From IMG/VR virus record IMGVR_UViG_3300030047_000130, positions 1 through 22,180 of that record: 22,180 nucleotides of DNA; one strand, given 5' to 3'. The notes under the pieces were generated by a model that worked only from the letters and a program-made list of their open reading frames with translations, was not told the origin of the DNA and searched no databases. The position numbers were made by a program, and so were the translations under genes. Position 1 is the first letter of the stretch, and each line of letters starts with the position of its first letter. Positions 1-13,427 of the stretch are shown here, in pieces. This stretch comes from a virus.

Positions 1-219
1 TATTCTATCTTTATATAGCCTAACCATTAAATATCCCTTTCGAGTTGGAAATGGTTTGAGAATCCTTTCTGGCATAAGTTTATAATACTTGCTTTTATTT
101 AACGCAAAATGACTTAAACTTTTTATGATTCCTAAACTACTACACCGATAATACCCTTCATAATTTGGTACATCCTTCCATCTTTGCCACAAACAACCTT
201 TTACTAAATTTCGTTTCAT
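1..219 (-). CDS. NUMOD4-type homing endonuclease, N-terminal part (runs off the window)
   Basis: The gene starts at 219 and runs leftwards off the window, so only 73 residues are visible. The N-terminus contains W-K-D-V-P-N-Y-E-G-Y-Y followed by SSLGIIKSL, which is the NUMOD4 DNA-binding motif found at the N-terminus of phage HNH homing endonucleases. It aligns with the start of the intact gene at 1460-2038 and of the broken gene at 12877-13427. The catalytic HNH region would lie beyond the edge. The start is fixed by the position of the motif and by the structured leader ending 11 nt upstream. Inference: a free-standing mobile endonuclease; only the NUMOD4 part is actually seen. Confidence 0.85.
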   Translation of the reverse strand, partial: MKRNLVKGCLWQRWKDVPNYEGYYRCSSLGIIKSLSHFALNKSKYYKLMPERILKPFPTRKGYLMVRLYKDRI

Positions 220-230
220 AATAATAAAAT

Positions 231-312
231 AGCCCCAAAGATTTCAATAGAGGTCTGACTTTCTATATCCATGCAATGAGGCTTATGATTGTTAATTACT
301 AAGTGTCAGACC
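231..312 (-). promoter_or_regulatory. Pseudoknot leader RNA, copy 1 (upstream of partial NUMOD4 gene)
   Basis: Read on the minus strand, segment A is GGTCTGAC (312-305), B is AGCCTC (283-278), A' is GTCAGACC (259-252) and B' is GGGGCT (236-231). A pairs perfectly with A' over 8 bp. B pairs with B' over 6 bp including one G-U. The order A-B-A'-B' makes an H-type pseudoknot. B' ends 11 nt before the ATG at 219. The same topology recurs at three other loci with different but still complementary sequences. Probable role: translational or transcriptional control of the endonuclease in cis; a role as a separate RNA cannot be excluded. Confidence 0.75.
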
Positions 313-326
313 GTAATTATATTATG

Positions 327-334
327 CAAAGATA
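327..334 (-). promoter_or_regulatory. Bacteroidetes-type promoter (-7 element) for the partial NUMOD4 gene
   Basis: The minus strand reads TATCTTTG, a perfect TAnnTTTG -7 element. Transcription should start near 320, a few nucleotides before pseudoknot segment A. A 25-bp stretch around this promoter (315-339) is identical to that at 2133-2157, upstream of the second NUMOD4 gene, which shows that the two promoter-leader-gene units are copies. Confidence 0.75.
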
Positions 335-360
335 ATGAATTATTTTGATATATCGAAGTT

Positions 361-1459: not shown

Positions 1460-2038
1460 TTACAACATAAAATAATACGGTTTACTATTGTCTATTATAC
1501 GATTTTTTTGATATGCGTTATGAGATTCTATCTCAGTATCAAAATAGCCTAAATGCTTTAATTTTCCGTTAATCTGAATTTGAGCAGCCCATTTTTTATC
1601 TCTCTTGTGCCAGTAAACTCCTCGATACTTACTTGAGAAGCCTGATTTGTCTTTCCTAAATCCAGCCTTATCTTTCCTAAAGCACGTTTGTACGTTTTGC
1701 TTTTGAGTTACAATTTGTAAATTAACTGCTTTATTATCCAGTTTATCTCCGTTAATATGATCAATTACAAGGTTCATTCCGTTGGGAATATGATTTAAAA
1801 AAGCCATTGCAATTAATTGATGAACAAGGAACATGTGGGTTTCTACATTTTTTCTTAGAGCTACACGTAAGTATCCTTTTCCTTCTGCCGCCATCAAAAT
1901 CCGTCCAGATACATAGTACGCTGAACTGTTTTTCATAATAATAGTCCTATCTAAACTCTTAATTCTACCAAAATTGCTTGCTTGATAATACCCTTCATAC
2001 CCGGGTATGTCTTTAAAAATTTCTTTATCTTCATTCAT
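1460..2038 (-). CDS. HNH homing-type endonuclease (NUMOD4 + HNH + AP2), 192 aa
   Basis: Domains in order: NUMOD4 (residues about 7-30, FKDIPGYEGYYQASNFGRIK), an HNH_3-type nuclease core (about 70-115: VHQLIAMAFL, then VIDHINGDKLDN with the catalytic D93-H94, then NLQIVTQKQN), and a C-terminal AP2-like DNA-binding domain (about 136-180: SSKYRGVYWHKRDKKW, with LGYFDTEIESHNAY). A linker at about 120-134 contains a 7-residue tandem duplication (FRKDKAG/FRKDKSG). An in-frame ATG at 2068 exists, but the NUMOD4 motif and leader place the start at 2038. The length is normal for this family. Such enzymes cut a specific unoccupied site and spread their own gene; this is a free-standing copy. It is the intact parent for comparison with the broken copy at 12877-13427. 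Confidence 0.93.
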   Translation of the reverse strand: MNEDKEIFKDIPGYEGYYQASNFGRIKSLDRTIIMKNSSAYYVSGRILMAAEGKGYLRVALRKNVETHMFLVHQLIAMAFLNHIPNGMNLVIDHINGDKLDNKAVNLQIVTQKQNVQTCFRKDKAGFRKDKSGFSSKYRGVYWHKRDKKWAAQIQINGKLKHLGYFDTEIESHNAYQKNRIIDNSKPYYFML

Positions 2039-2050
2039 AATAATAAAAAT

Positions 2051-2129
2051 GCCCCGAATAGTTCGCAACGCTTCTCACTTCGTTACTCTCTAAACAGGGC
2101 TTTATTGGTTATTGCAGTTATGTGAGAAG
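2051..2129 (-). promoter_or_regulatory. Pseudoknot leader RNA, copy 2 (upstream of HNH endonuclease)
   Basis: On the minus strand A is CTTCTCAC (2129-2122), B is GCCCTG (2100-2095), A' is GTGAGAAG (2078-2071) and B' is CGGGGC (2056-2051). A/A' is 8 bp perfect; B/B' is 6 bp with one G-U. Gaps are 21, 16 and 14 nt, and 12 nt separate B' from the ATG at 2038. The spacing matches the three other copies although the stem sequences differ. Confidence 0.78.
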
Positions 2130-2144
2130 TGCAATTATATTATG

Positions 2145-2152
2145 CAAAGATA
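2145..2152 (-). promoter_or_regulatory. Promoter -7 element for the HNH endonuclease gene
   Basis: The minus strand reads TATCTTTG followed by CATAATATAATT, identical to the sequence at the leftmost NUMOD4 gene. Transcription would start about 8-9 nt before segment A of the pseudoknot. Confidence 0.75.
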
Positions 2153-4608: not shown

Positions 4609-4637
4609 ATTCGTTTTATTTGTTAGTTTATAATTGG

Positions 4638-4645
4638 CAAAGATA
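4638..4645 (-). promoter_or_regulatory. Promoter -7 element for the 4608-2189 leftward operon
   Basis: The minus strand reads TATCTTTG, 30 nt before the ATG at 4608. The nearest iteron (4665-4675) would lie about 20-30 bp upstream of it, overlapping the expected -33 region, so whatever binds the array could also control this promoter. Confidence 0.7.
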
Positions 4646-4664
4646 ATACTTTAATTAGAATATT

Positions 4665-4921
4665 TGGCATAAATAGAGTCAATGTTTATTTATGCCAAGC
4701 ACTTTGTTATTTATGCCAGCTAAAATGCTATTTATACCGGCAAAATTCTATTTATGCCATTGTTAAAATTTCTATTTACGCCACTATATACTAATAAATA
4801 CTAATGTGAATGTATTATAACTGAATTTAAATGTTTATTAATTACGCCAAATATATGATCTTTGTGATTTAATTACGCCAAATACGGTTGGCATAAATAA
4901 TATATGAATTTAATTGTGCCA
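4665..4921. repeat. Array of ten 11-bp iterons (TADTTAYGCCA), candidate replication origin
   Basis: Copies on the plus strand: 4687-4697, 4708-4718, 4729-4739 (variant TATTTATACCG), 4749-4759, 4773-4783, 4839-4849, 4870-4880 and 4911-4921. Copies on the minus strand: 4665-4675 and 4889-4899. The first four plus copies are spaced 21, 21 and 20 bp apart, i.e. on the same face of the helix. Two subtypes exist: TATTTATGCCA on the left and TAATTACGCCA on the right. A very AT-rich segment follows. This layout matches iteron origins that bind a replication initiator, but a repressor array is an alternative. Confidence 0.8.
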
Positions 4922-5416: not shown

Positions 5417-6256
5417 TTACTTATCAGCAGTTTCAATCAAATTTAAGAACGATTCTTTTGTAAATCCAAATGCTCTGTCCCAATCTGTTTTTGACTGGAG
5501 AGAAACAAATTCATACAATTTCATAACGTCCTGCTGTGATATGAGTTCTTTATATTCTGCACGCAAAGACTTATAATCAACATAAAGAACGTAAATAGTA
5601 TTGTTGTATATACTGACAGGTGTAAGTCGACCAGAAGCGTTTAAAACGGCATTAGAAGCATAACTTTTCAACAGTCTGGTTTTATCGTTGATTCTTGAAT
5701 GATATTTTACTGCTTTATTAAATTCTTTGTAAATTATTGCTATTGCACTTCTAAATCTCACCGGACTTTTATTGGTTGAAATTTGAACAGTGCCGGAGTT
5801 TCTTGTTTGCCGGAACTTAAGAGGTTGTATTTCGTCAAATCTGCACATATAACAGCGGTTTCCACCTACTTCGTAGGGGAATACGAACTTACACTTATCT
5901 TGTGGAAATGAACGCTTTGGAGCGCAGCAAATGAAGCCCACTGGAACATACCACAATTTAAAGCTATCAAAACTCACATCGGGATACGATGAAGGATTTT
6001 GCACAAAATGGGTAAATTTAAGTAAATGCGGGCTATTTAGCACTTCGGTATGCGATTTTGTTGAGATGTCGTCACGAATGAATGTTTTTTGAATTAAATC
6101 AGCGATTTCAAAGCGTTCTACACCCAGATAAACGCAGCCGTTAAAGGTTTCAATAGAACGCCCTTCTATTGTCCTAACGTGTCCTAAATCACTTAATAAG
6201 TAATTTCCATTATTTGGAATGATCCTCCAGTTTTCTTGTATTTTTTCTTTACTCAT
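5417..6256 (-). CDS. NUMOD4-containing protein without an HNH motif, 279 aa
   Basis: The N-terminus (about residues 8-35, ENWRIIPNNGNYLLSDLGHV then RTIEG) is a NUMOD4 motif. A short segment, YLGVERFEIADLIQKTFI, corresponds to the part of HNH_3 proteins before the active site. The catalytic D-H-x-N-G signature is absent. The remaining 200 residues, with a CxxC (CYMC near residue 136) and a helical C-terminus, match nothing I recognise. The start at 6256 is preferred over an upstream ATG at 6322 because the latter lies inside the leader stem. The gene carries the same pseudoknot leader as the true HNH genes and sits beside the iteron array. Possibly a domesticated relative of a homing endonuclease turned DNA-binding protein; function unproven. 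Confidence 0.8.
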   Translation of the reverse strand: MSKEKIQENWRIIPNNGNYLLSDLGHVRTIEGRSIETFNGCVYLGVERFEIADLIQKTFIRDDISTKSHTEVLNSPHLLKFTHFVQNPSSYPDVSFDSFKLWYVPVGFICCAPKRSFPQDKCKFVFPYEVGGNRCYMCRFDEIQPLKFRQTRNSGTVQISTNKSPVRFRSAIAIIYKEFNKAVKYHSRINDKTRLLKSYASNAVLNASGRLTPVSIYNNTIYVLYVDYKSLRAEYKELISQQDVMKLYEFVSLQSKTDWDRAFGFTKESFLNLIETADK

Positions 6257-6266
6257 AATATAAATA

Positions 6267-6345
6267 AATCCCAATTCACAAATAAGAGGTAGGCAACTTC
6301 TTAAATATAAATTGGGATTCAAAAATTAGTTATACCGGTGCCTAC
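6267..6345 (-). promoter_or_regulatory. Pseudoknot leader RNA, copy 4 (upstream of the NUMOD4 protein)
   Basis: On the minus strand A is GTAGGCA (6345-6339), B is AATCCCAATT (6319-6310), A' is TGCCTAC (6295-6289) and B' is AATTGGGATT (6276-6267). A/A' is 7 bp and B/B' 10 bp, both perfect. Gaps are 19, 14 and 12 nt, and 10 nt separate B' from the ATG at 6256. Segment A sits in a loop between two CCGG tetramers, so a third small stem is possible. Confidence 0.78.
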
Positions 6346-11184: not shown

Positions 11185-11399
11185 GTAATTTAGTAGAATC
11201 AATCGCCTTAATGCAGGCTGAGATATCTGAGTTGAGAAGAATACTTGGATGCTTGAATTTATTTTCTTTCGATAAGAAATATGATACATTTGTGGAGTTC
11301 TCGGATGGTACAGGAACGAGTTCCATGGTATTTGAAAACGTTAAAAGGTTACATTTAAGAATAGAAGAACTTGAAAAATCAATACCTAAAAACTTATGA
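11181..11399 (+). CDS. Hypothetical protein with terminal coiled-coil segments, 72 aa
   Basis: Helical ends (MSNLVESIALMQAEISELRR and KRLHLRIEELEKSIPKNL) flank a polar middle with FDKKYDTFVEFSDGTGTSSM. Probably a small dimeric helical protein. Coupled by ATGA overlaps on both sides. The stop overlaps the start of the inserted GIY-YIG gene; before that insertion it would probably have overlapped the VRR-NUC start in the same way. Confidence 0.68.
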   Translation: MSNLVESIALMQAEISELRRILGCLNLFSFDKKYDTFVEFSDGTGTSSMVFENVKRLHLRIEELEKSIPKNL

Positions 11400-12397
11400 A
11401 ACCTCACGACAAACTTCAGTCCGACAATAATGCTTACGTATATTTACATATAGATATTGCAACTGATGACGTGTTTTATGTTGGAATAAGTAATAATAAC
11501 GATGGAGGCAAATATAATAGGGCAAATAGAATACATAGTAGGAGTAGATTTTGGAATAACTATACAAAGCTTAACGGTTTTAAAATTGAAATATACAAAG
11601 ACAATATTAGTTGGAAAGAAGCTTGCAAATTAGAAAATGAACTTATTATCAAATTTGGTAGAAGGGATATTAAAACTGGAAATTTGGTAAATCTAACTAA
11701 TGGAGGAGAGGGGTTTATAGGACACTCAAAAGAAATGAAAAAATCTCTATCTATAGGGACTAAAAAATCATGGGCTGATGGGAAGATGGATATTTTACTG
11801 AAAAAAATATATAAATATTCTGATAATGGAGAGTTAGTAAGCAGTTTTAATTCAATTAAAGAAGCTGAAAAGGAAACTAAAATCTGTAGAACAGAAATAT
11901 CTGCATGCGTAAATAATAAGCGACTAAGGGCTGGAGGTTATTTTTGGTCTTTTGAAAACAGTGGAGTTAAAGTGCCAGAACTTAAACCAAGAGGGTGGAG
12001 TGGAAAGGTTGGTATAGTTGGGTATGATATAATTACAGAAAAAGTATATACATTTGCATCCGAAAAAGAGGCAGAGATTTATTTTAAAATATCGGGGTTG
12101 TCCACAAGTATATGTAAATGCATTCATGGTGAAACAGAAAGGGCAAATGATATTATATGGTACAACTCAGAACACGACAGTAATTTAGCACTGATAAAGA
12201 GAGCTTCTATTCGAGGAGAAAGAATGATTGTCAGGATTGATAAACTTAATAATATAGAGATATTCAACAACCTTAAAGACGCCTGCTTTCTCACAAATGG
12301 AATAGATTTTAGAAACGTTTCTGCTTGTACATTTGGGAAACAGAAAACAGCATACGGATATAAATGGAAAAAATTAAAAGATTATGAAAGAGCATGA
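11396..12397 (+). CDS. GIY-YIG homing endonuclease with NUMOD3/NUMOD1 repeats, 333 aa
   Basis: The GIY-YIG core is YVYLHI (14-19) with FYVGIS (27-32); basic residues follow (R42, R45, R49, R51) and the metal-binding Glu lies in ACKLENELI (about E80). A NUMOD3-like basic motif, GHSKEMKKSLSIGTKKSW, lies near residues 108-125. Three NUMOD1-like DNA-binding repeats follow, each with the pattern strand-(E/K)AE-helix ending in G-Y-x-W or similar: about 135-180, 205-252 and 272-330. Such enzymes nick or cut a recognition site to move their own gene. The first nine residues (MKPHDKLQS) resemble the start of the next gene (MKEHDTLQA), and the gene is inserted exactly at that gene's 5' end. The 3' end overlaps the VRR-NUC gene by 14 nt. 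No intron or intein features are seen, so it is free-standing. Confidence 0.9.
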   Translation: MKPHDKLQSDNNAYVYLHIDIATDDVFYVGISNNNDGGKYNRANRIHSRSRFWNNYTKLNGFKIEIYKDNISWKEACKLENELIIKFGRRDIKTGNLVNLTNGGEGFIGHSKEMKKSLSIGTKKSWADGKMDILLKKIYKYSDNGELVSSFNSIKEAEKETKICRTEISACVNNKRLRAGGYFWSFENSGVKVPELKPRGWSGKVGIVGYDIITEKVYTFASEKEAEIYFKISGLSTSICKCIHGETERANDIIWYNSEHDSNLALIKRASIRGERMIVRIDKLNNIEIFNNLKDACFLTNGIDFRNVSACTFGKQKTAYGYKWKKLKDYERA

Positions 12398-12761: not shown

Positions 12762-12779
12762 AAATAATAACTATATTTG
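12749..12779 (+). promoter_or_regulatory. Promoter of the broken HNH unit
   Basis: TTG at 12749-12751 and TATATTTG at 12772-12779, separated by 20 nt. The -33 part lies inside the end of the VRR-NUC coding sequence. Transcription would start about 4-5 nt before pseudoknot segment A. Confidence 0.68.
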
Positions 12780-12788
12780 TAAATACAT

Positions 12789-12866
12789 GTTGCTTCATGT
12801 AAAACTAATTTATAAGTCCCTTAGAGTAAGTCAGGAAGCAGCAATTTCCTACTGAAATTTGGGACT
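12789..12866 (+). promoter_or_regulatory. Pseudoknot leader RNA, copy 3 (upstream of broken HNH gene)
   Basis: A is GTTGCTTC (12789-12796), B is AGTCCC (12815-12820), A' is GAAGCAGC (12835-12842) and B' is GGGACT (12861-12866). A/A' is 8 bp with one U-G, B/B' 6 bp perfect. Gaps are 18, 14 and 18 nt; 10 nt lie between B' and the ATG at 12877. A small extra hairpin (AATTTC/GAAATT) fills the A'-B' gap. The leader is intact although the gene it serves is frameshifted. Confidence 0.78.
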
Positions 12867-12876
12867 ATTTTTTATT

Positions 12877-13427
12877 ATGGAAGAAATAGAAGTTTGGAAA
12901 GATATCCCTAATTACGAGGGGTATTATCAAGTTAGTAATTTAGGCAGGGTAAAAGGGTTAAAAAGGACTGTTCCTTTAATGTATGGACGTTACAGAGTCA
13001 ATAATGAGAAAATTATAAAGCTACCTATAGATAGCCACGGATATTTAAAATGTAGTTTATGTAAAAACGGTATTGCAACCACAGAAAAAGCTCACGCCCT
13101 TGTGGCGATAGCATTTTTAGGACATATACCTAATGGTAACATTATAGTTATAGACCACATTAACGGATGTAAAACTGATAATATGGTTAGTAACTTGCAG
13201 ATAGTAACTCATAGAGAAATACATCTACTTGTTTTAGAAAACTAGAAGATACTTTTTCGAGTCAATATCTAGGAGTTTCTTGGGATAAGCATGCTAAAAA
13301 ATGTGTTTCTAAAATTAGGGTTAATGGAGAATCAAAGTATTTAGGTTATTTTTATACTGGAATCGAAGCATCTGATGCGTATCAAAAAGCTTTTAAAAAT
13401 TTACTTAGTGTTCAAATTAAAAAATAA
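12877..13427 (+). pseudogene. Frameshifted HNH homing-type endonuclease (NUMOD4 + HNH + AP2)
   Basis: The first frame, from the ATG at 12877, encodes NUMOD4 (VWKDIPNYEGYYQVSNLGRV), the HNH core (HALVAIAFLGHIP, VIDHINGCKTDN, NLQIVTHRE) and then stops at 13245. The frame at -1 continues without a break in homology: NTSTCFRKLEDTFSSQYLGV then SWDKHAKKC and NGESKYLGYFYTGIEASDAY, ending at 13427. This matches the C-terminal AP2 part of the intact copy at 1460-2038. One missing A in the run near 13216-13219 (GAAAT for GAAAAT) explains it. Catalytic residues are intact in the first part, so a truncated 122-residue protein could still be made. An assembly error in the A run is possible. An in-frame TTG at 12859 lies within the leader and is not the start. 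Confidence 0.88.

What the first reader, a model, noticed from the sequence alone, without database searches (positions are those of the whole stretch)
219..340. A recurring pseudoknot leader RNA, four copies with covarying stems, always ahead of NUMOD4-type genes
Four leaders (231-312, 2051-2129 and 6267-6345 on the minus strand; 12789-12866 on the plus strand) have segments in the order A-B-A'-B'. A pairs with A' over 7-8 bp and B with B' over 6-10 bp. Gaps are similar: A-B 18-21 nt, B-A' 14-18 nt, A'-B' 12-18 nt, and 10-12 nt from B' to the ATG. Stem A differs completely between copies (GGTCTGAC, CTTCTCAC, GTTGCTTC, GTAGGCA), yet A' remains complementary in each. Stem B covaries around a CC(C)/GG(G) core. 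A promoter -7 box lies 10-24 nt before each. All four precede NUMOD4-type genes, and no other gene class in the window has one. Homing-gene expression is known to be held down by RNA hairpins in phage T4. A defined pseudoknot family linked to Bacteroidetes phage NUMOD4 genes may be undescribed.
Basis: seen in the sequence. Interest (0 to 1): 0.88.

Follow-up and report, generated by a model that had tools for sequence, protein, structure and literature searches.

The report
Kissing-hairpin leader RNA of phage genes
In front of "homing" DNA-cutting genes, and also in front of the DNA-replication genes of related phages of Bacteroidota, there is a short folded RNA whose base-paired stems have changed their letters almost completely while staying complementary; no RNA family in Rfam matches it, and it looks like a shared on/off control element.

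Summary
All four leaders exist at the stated coordinates and are the only ones among 29 window ORFs. More data change the anatomy and the scope. In 20 leaders, 96% of cells in 22 pairs form standard pairs and all 22 pairs show double-sided changes (slid controls about 40%). H2 is followed by a U-tract and looks like an intrinsic terminator. This "class I" RNA is not NUMOD4-specific: it also heads phage replication operons (17 of 18 non-redundant members of one 70-aa gene family upstream of replication initiators) and other genes. A second, different RNA ("class II", a three-way junction whose loop pairs with two copies of one target before AUG) is endonuclease-specific: in a protein-blind DNA scan all 25 copies precede homing endonucleases (24 NUMOD4-HNH, 1 GIY-YIG). 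No Rfam match. Best reading: cis-acting leaders that restrict or time expression of endonuclease and replication genes, class I probably by transcription attenuation. Existence is near certain; mechanism is inferred.

The parts
217..334 (-). Leader 1 (class I): TAnnTTTG box 334-327; P0 319-313/299-293; A 312-305 with A' 259-252 (8 bp); B 283-277 with B' 237-231 (7 bp); U-rich tail 230-220; ATG 219-217
   Evidence: CM R1 42.1 bits
1..219 (-). NUMOD4 gene behind leader 1 (cut by window end)
   Evidence: Pfam PF07463 E 1.6e-11
2036..2152 (-). Leader 2 (class I): box 2152-2145; P0 2135-2130/2116-2111; A 2129-2122 with A' 2078-2071 (8 bp); B 2100-2095 with B' 2056-2051; U-rich tail; ATG 2038
   Evidence: CM R1 36.1 bits
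1460..2038 (-). NUMOD4-HNH-AP2 homing endonuclease-type gene, 192 aa
6254..6376 (-). Leader 3 (class I): box 6376-6369; P0 6350-6347/6338-6335; A 6345-6339 with A' 6295-6289 (7 bp); B 6319-6310 with B' 6276-6267 (10 bp); ATG 6256
   Evidence: CM R1 36.2 bits
5417..6256 (-). 279-aa gene with a weak N-terminal NUMOD4 and no HNH match
12772..12879 (+). Leader 4 (class I): box 12772-12779; P0 12783-12788/12797-12802; A 12789-12796 with A' 12835-12842 (8 bp); B 12815-12820 with B' 12861-12866 (6 bp); U-rich tail; ATG 12877
   Evidence: CM R1 32.8 bits
12877..13245 (+). NUMOD4-HNH gene, 122 aa, ends early; AP2 part continues in another frame to about 13427

Best explanation
The four leaders are copies of a cis-acting 5' leader RNA of about 90-105 nt. 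Transcription starts at a Bacteroidota-type promoter whose box (TAnnTTTG) usually ends 1-9 nt before the first hairpin, so H1 forms at or near the 5' end. H1's loop (A) pairs with the apical loop (A') of hairpin H2. H2's stem (B:B') is preceded by an A-rich stretch and followed directly by a U-tract, the signature of an intrinsic terminator. Most likely the RNA limits and times expression of the gene behind it: H2, locked by the kissing helix, causes termination just before the gene, and where it lies 9-15 nt before the AUG it also obstructs ribosome loading. Endonuclease cassettes carry promoter, leader and ORF together and use the same type of control element as the phage's replication operon. 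Shown: the structure, its conservation, its gene neighbours. Inferred: attenuation, direction of effect, any trans-acting factor.
For: Structure: 96.2% of 396 cells paired versus 50.5% shuffled and about 40% slid; 22 of 22 pairs with double-sided changes; P0 was not used to select members. P0 at -7 kcal or better in 14 of 45 versus 4.5% in shuffles. Window leader 3 versus its orthologue: promoter and CDS still align, the leader no longer does, yet all three helices persist. Terminator signature: T is 76% of the 8 nt after B', a T-run of at least 5 in 22/23 leaders versus 110/578 control ORFs, L1b 56% A; 71% versus 31% T in the unbiased scan. In 15 scanned leaders of the 70-aa gene family the U-tract stays next to B' (79% T) although the AUG is 41-55 nt away: this favours termination over start-codon blocking. 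Position: 20 of 23 P0 begin 1-9 nt after the box. Gene context: replication initiators and endonucleases. Cassette: P12002L has promoter+leader+HEG between two genes that abut in P12002S.
Against: No transcript, terminator or reporter data. H2's loop (about 20-45 nt) is large for an intrinsic terminator, and the standard terminator scan does not flag these sites (loop limit 3-8). A:A' and B:B' are compatible, so no built-in on/off exclusion is visible for class I. A U-rich stretch before AUG could instead serve ribosomal protein bS1. A and B helices were used to select members, so their pairing percentages are partly circular. The promoter call rests on a short consensus.
Confidence: 0.5

Rival explanations
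1. Translational gate. H2 (and its A-rich/U-rich extension) covers about -10 to -20 and blocks 30S loading; opening of the structure turns translation on. Class II works this way through two competing B' sites.
For: B' ends 9-23 nt before AUG in 23 class I leaders. In Flavobacterium, low structure from -20 to +20 goes with high translation and bS1 is positioned at -12 to -15 (PMC6847099). In class II loop B matches two sites by at least 7 bp in 11/11 versus 0.8% of shuffles, one ending 2-9 nt and the other 19-31 nt before AUG; 23 of 25 protein-blind copies also carry both sites.
Against: In the replication-operon leaders H2 lies 41-55 nt from the AUG yet keeps its U-tract.
Confidence: 0.25
2. 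Autogenous or regulon control by a trans-acting single-stranded nucleic-acid-binding protein, as with T4 gp32 and its pseudoknot operator. The 70-aa protein behind class I leaders is the candidate. (Compatible with either output route; the figure is for a protein factor being the main switch.)
For: Leader precedes the 70-aa gene in 17 of 18 usable non-redundant homologues. AlphaFold model (pLDDT 89.9) has PUR-alpha and Whirly domains among its best PDB matches, TMq up to 0.68. T4 gp32 recognises a structure with relaxed sequence demands plus A/U-rich repeats (PMC535899).
Against: Foldseek E-values are only 0.16-0.6. Several leaders precede other genes, and the 70-aa gene was not sought in every phage.
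Confidence: 0.2
3. mRNA stabiliser: a 5'-terminal structured element that protects phage transcripts from 5'-end-dependent decay.
For: P0 mostly starts 1-9 nt after the promoter box, so the 5' end is probably buried in H1.
Against: Does not explain the U-tract or the second hairpin.
Confidence: 0.1
4. Ligand-sensing riboswitch.
For: Class II has invariant or nearly invariant junction letters (GGAUAG, UGA) and a recurring UAAUUA loop.
Against: Class I has almost no fixed letters outside an A-rich linker; downstream genes share no metabolite.
Confidence: 0.07
5. DNA-level feature only: homing site, operator or leftover of insertion, not RNA.
For: T4 endonucleases bind operators next to their genes (PMC2988022).
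Against: Whole-stem turnover with kept complementarity in an A-B-A'-B' order plus P0, and the same element before non-endonuclease genes.
Confidence: 0.03

Closest known systems
T4 gene 32 translational operator (pseudoknot + UUAAA repeats bound by gp32)
   Same: Phage replication-gene leader; structured 5' part followed by A/U-rich sequence; structure kept while sequence diverges (PMC535899).
   Different: T4's folded part is about 28 nt; here 83-120 nt to the AUG with three helices and a kissing loop. No protein partner shown. Many different genes share it.
T4 / Aeh1 homing-endonuclease hairpins (I-TevI, segB, mobE)
   Same: RNA structure before a phage homing endonuclease gene; purpose probably to restrict expression (PMC2988022).
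   Different: Those are single hairpins over a Shine-Dalgarno site, left out of late transcripts by a nearby late promoter; here the promoter precedes the whole structure and no Shine-Dalgarno site is seen.
Plasmid replication-control leaders (ColIb-P9/IncB pseudoknot, pT181 attenuator)
   Same: Loop pairing in the leader of a replication initiator decides expression (titles cited in PMC10724649; details from general knowledge).
   Different: No antisense RNA seen; A:A' pairing is within one RNA and the elements are not known to be homologous.
Rfam HEARO and other endonuclease-linked RNAs
   Same: RNA next to HNH genes.
   Different: No match at gathering score or relaxed E-value.

Membership tests
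Any of 4227 Rfam 15 families (incl. HEARO) | covariance-model score at or above gathering score | tested here: not met
   0 matches; relaxed E<=1 on the window and 12 loci: two unrelated weak hits outside the leaders
Intrinsic terminator / attenuator | GC-rich stem directly followed by a U-tract | tested here: met
   76% T in 8 nt after B', T-run>=5 in 22/23 versus 19% of control ORFs
Intrinsic terminator / attenuator | short loop (3-8 nt) | tested here: not met
   apical loops are about 20-45 nt; standard scan does not flag the sites
Intrinsic terminator / attenuator | termination at the U-tract, modulated by conditions | not testable with these tools
   needs 3'-end mapping or reporters
T4-type endonuclease hairpin | hairpin sequesters a Shine-Dalgarno site | tested here: not met
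   U/A-rich region before AUG in class I leaders, by inspection and composition
T4-type endonuclease hairpin | late promoter placed so that late mRNA lacks the hairpin | tested here: not met
   TAnnTTTG box lies 1-23 nt upstream of P0, so its transcript contains the whole structure; transcripts not mapped
T4 gene 32-type operator | pseudoknot followed by A/U-rich single strand | tested here: met
T4 gene 32-type operator | bound by the phage's own single-strand-binding protein | tested here: inconclusive
   PUR/Whirly-like fold suggested for the 70-aa protein, weak E-values; no binding data
Riboswitch | conserved ligand-binding core letters | tested here: inconclusive
   class I: essentially none; class II: GGAUAG/UGA junction invariant or nearly so

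The most novel reading that the evidence does not exclude
A phage-wide RNA regulon: one kissing-hairpin leader family controls both the replication operon and mobile endonuclease cassettes of Bacteroidota phages, read by a phage-encoded PUR-like single-strand-binding protein made from the same operon; endonucleases have adopted the leader so that they are made when the phage DNA replicates. Each copy uses its own A strands, which do not match those of the other copies in the same genome, so copies would not cross-pair through A.
Probability: 0.2. Interest if true: 0.93.

Novelty: new variant of a known kind. Interest (0 to 1): 0.8.

Why it matters
Gene control in phages of Bacteroidota, a dominant phylum in gut and sea, is little known, and the phylum does not use Shine-Dalgarno pairing. 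Two unlisted, widespread leader RNAs, one shared by homing endonucleases and replication operons and one confined to endonucleases, give a concrete handle on how such phages time genes and how selfish endonucleases fit into the host phage's programme. The near-total turnover of stem letters under kept pairing also explains why sequence- and CM-based surveys would miss class I. Cultured phages (tooticki, FCV-1, P12002L, phi18:3) make it testable now.

Tried and rejected
Plain H-type pseudoknot: replaced after P0 was found. NUMOD4-only association for class I: rejected by the unbiased scans. Known Rfam family: rejected. Whole-genome search with CM R2 in 298 genomes found nothing, but only 13 of the many candidates per genome were scored, so it is uninformative; R1 on 13 host genomes gave only two matches at E 0.3-0.6. 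DNA pattern GGGGCWWTTTTWTTATTATG found two near-copies of leader 1 plus other sequences. The p2 locus as an empty-site comparison with relative G015 was too diverged to define ends. Firmicutes NUMOD4 genes have other structures and were set aside. Paper searches found no description of this RNA.

Full report
CHECK OF THE OBSERVATION. The window is an IMG/VR virus record. I scored an A-B-A'-B' descriptor with nearest-neighbour energies. Over all window ORFs of about 80 aa or more, four starts score -30.7 to -36.2 and the next best is -18.4. The four genes carry NUMOD4: three above the Pfam cut-off and the 279-aa gene weakly (16.4 bits). Among 65 non-redundant NUMOD4 starts with a Bacteroidota-type box, 24 reach -24 kcal against 1 of 1300 dinucleotide shuffles and 2 of 66 boxed control ORFs.

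ANATOMY, CLASS I. Relatives from IMG/VR and cultured phages showed a third helix, P0, whose loop is the 5' strand of A, for example GTAG[A]CTAC, AATTAC[A]..GTAATT and AATGTAATG[A]CATTACATT. The RNA is therefore two hairpins: H1 = P0 with loop A, and H2 = B:B' with A' in its loop, joined by a 7-9 bp kissing helix A:A'. On a 20-sequence alignment (rows padded with N, no letters altered, some long loops and stems shortened) 96.2% of cells are paired against 50.5% in shuffles and 37-43% when partners are slid, and all 22 pairs show changes on both sides. P0 was not used to choose members. Own versus swapped strands pair at 0.92/0.41 (P0), 1.00/0.46 (A) and 0.94/0.56 (B). Window leader 3 and its orthologue in record G015 keep promoter and coding similarity but little alignable leader, yet all three helices are rebuilt with new letters.

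SIGNALS AROUND IT. In 20 of 23 leaders P0 starts 1-9 nt after a TAnnTTTG-like box, and B' is followed by a U-tract: 76% T in the next 8 nt, a run of at least 5 T in 22/23 against 110/578 control ORFs. The stretch before B is 56% A. In the scan that used no gene information the top hits have 71% T after B' against 31% for background hits.

GENE CONTEXT, CLASS I. A scan of 0.9 Mb of phage DNA (mostly contigs chosen because they hold NUMOD4 genes) gives 28 hits at -32 or better against 0.6 in shuffles. Of 36 non-redundant hits at -30 or better, 19 precede NUMOD4 genes by HMM, plus the weak NUMOD4 gene of window leader 3. Others precede replication-initiation genes (P12002L/S and two more), PAPS reductase, a helicase, HNH genes without NUMOD4, an Nmad5 protein and a family of about 70 aa. 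For that 70-aa family, sought by protein and not by RNA, 15 non-redundant leaders were found by scan and two more by eye (L422, L435) among 18 with usable upstream sequence; L427 has none. The stems differ between homologues. In the ten examined, the next gene is or resembles a DnaD-like or O-like replication initiator. There the AUG is 41-55 nt from B', so the U-tract belongs to the RNA and not to the start site. Four HNH genes of phi19:1 lack a leader of their own.

CLASS II. Other NUMOD4 leaders fold differently. A:A' (xxGG/CCxx) encloses AUAG, hairpin C (loop often with UAAUUA), UGA and hairpin D whose loop B pairs downstream; the nested stems are 93.1% paired against 66.7% shuffled and 37-53% slid. 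B has two targets, B'1 and B'2, both at least 7 bp in 11/11 against 0.8% of shuffles; B'2 ends 2-9 nt before the AUG. A DNA pattern scan blind to proteins found 31 stretches: 25 are leaders, 24 before NUMOD4 genes and one (L391) before a GIY-YIG-type protein (judged from its N-terminus); six are chance matches. The pattern was built from one sub-type (AAGCGTTTACG loop), so other class II sub-types are not covered by this test.

MOBILITY. P12002L has a HEG (28031-28516) with box and class II leader between genes that abut in P12002S; the right-hand junction is at the stop codon, while the left flank is diverged, so that edge is approximate. The leader is thus part of the cassette. In T4, by contrast, seven free-standing endonucleases are promoter-less (PMC2988022).

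MECHANISM. Shown: structure, selection on pairing, promoter-proximal position, U-tract, gene classes. Inferred: class I acts as an attenuator (0.5), with translational gating as the main rival (0.25). In Flavobacterium low structure from -20 to +20 accompanies high translation (PMC6847099), so both routes predict reduced expression when H2 forms. A trans-acting factor is possible: the 70-aa protein is predicted with good confidence (pLDDT 89.9) and its best PDB matches are PUR-alpha and Whirly single-strand-binding folds, with weak E-values. T4 gp32, an ssDNA-binding protein that recognises a pseudoknot leader of relaxed sequence, is the nearest working analogue (PMC535899).

LIMITS. Class I members were found with a descriptor that contains A and B, so their pairing percentages are partly circular; P0, the U-tract, the shuffles and the 70-aa set are the independent supports. 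Host phylum for the window is inferred from promoter type and relatives (Flavobacterium, Polaribacter, Cellulophaga phages). Presence in bacterial genomes was not properly tested.

VERDICT. Real, structured, unlisted in Rfam and wider than the finding claimed. I file it as a new variant of a known kind (cis-acting leader RNA), because leader RNAs that control phage endonuclease or replication genes are known in principle, while this architecture, its spread and its sharing between the two gene groups are new to the sources I could search.

Noticed in passing
L419-L443; L386:2817-3026 (-); L316:12779-12991; L387:10495-10713: A conserved ~70-aa protein directly upstream of replication initiators in Bacteroidota phages, predicted bbbb-alpha fold resembling PUR-alpha/Whirly single-strand-binding domains.
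   Followed up: partly
L419-L442, between the class I U-tract and the AUG of the 70-aa gene: A further conserved hairpin-like stretch, xGGTAATCTTnAAACCx, shortly before the start codon.
   Followed up: no
L256, L269, L277 (IMG/VR contigs with Shine-Dalgarno sites before NUMOD4 genes): NUMOD4 leaders with a ~12-bp hairpin whose ~26-nt loop is complementary over about 20 nt to sequence just before the ribosome binding site: a different, possibly switching, structure.
   Followed up: no
L153, L154, L192, L193, L197, L157 (Clostridia and relatives): NUMOD4 genes preceded by a GGTGGnGGGG...CCACC hairpin and then an RBS; may be yet another leader or an upstream terminator.
   Followed up: no
window 12877-13427: NUMOD4-HNH gene breaks off at a stop at 13245; the AP2 part continues in another frame, also in four near-identical contigs (L083-L086).
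   Followed up: partly
window 5417-6256 and L223-L225: Family of 279-aa proteins with a weak NUMOD4 at the N-terminus and no HNH match, 62% identical between phages; function unknown.
   Followed up: partly
window 11396-12397: GIY-YIG/NUMOD1-type gene with no leader of either class.
   Followed up: partly
L313 28031-28516 versus L314 28318-28366: Endonuclease cassette present in Polaribacter phage P12002L, absent in P12002S: a natural filled/empty pair.
   Followed up: yes
window 4634-4738: Long imperfect inverted repeat (TTGGCATAAATAG family) in an intergenic region, terminator-like on the + strand.
   Followed up: no
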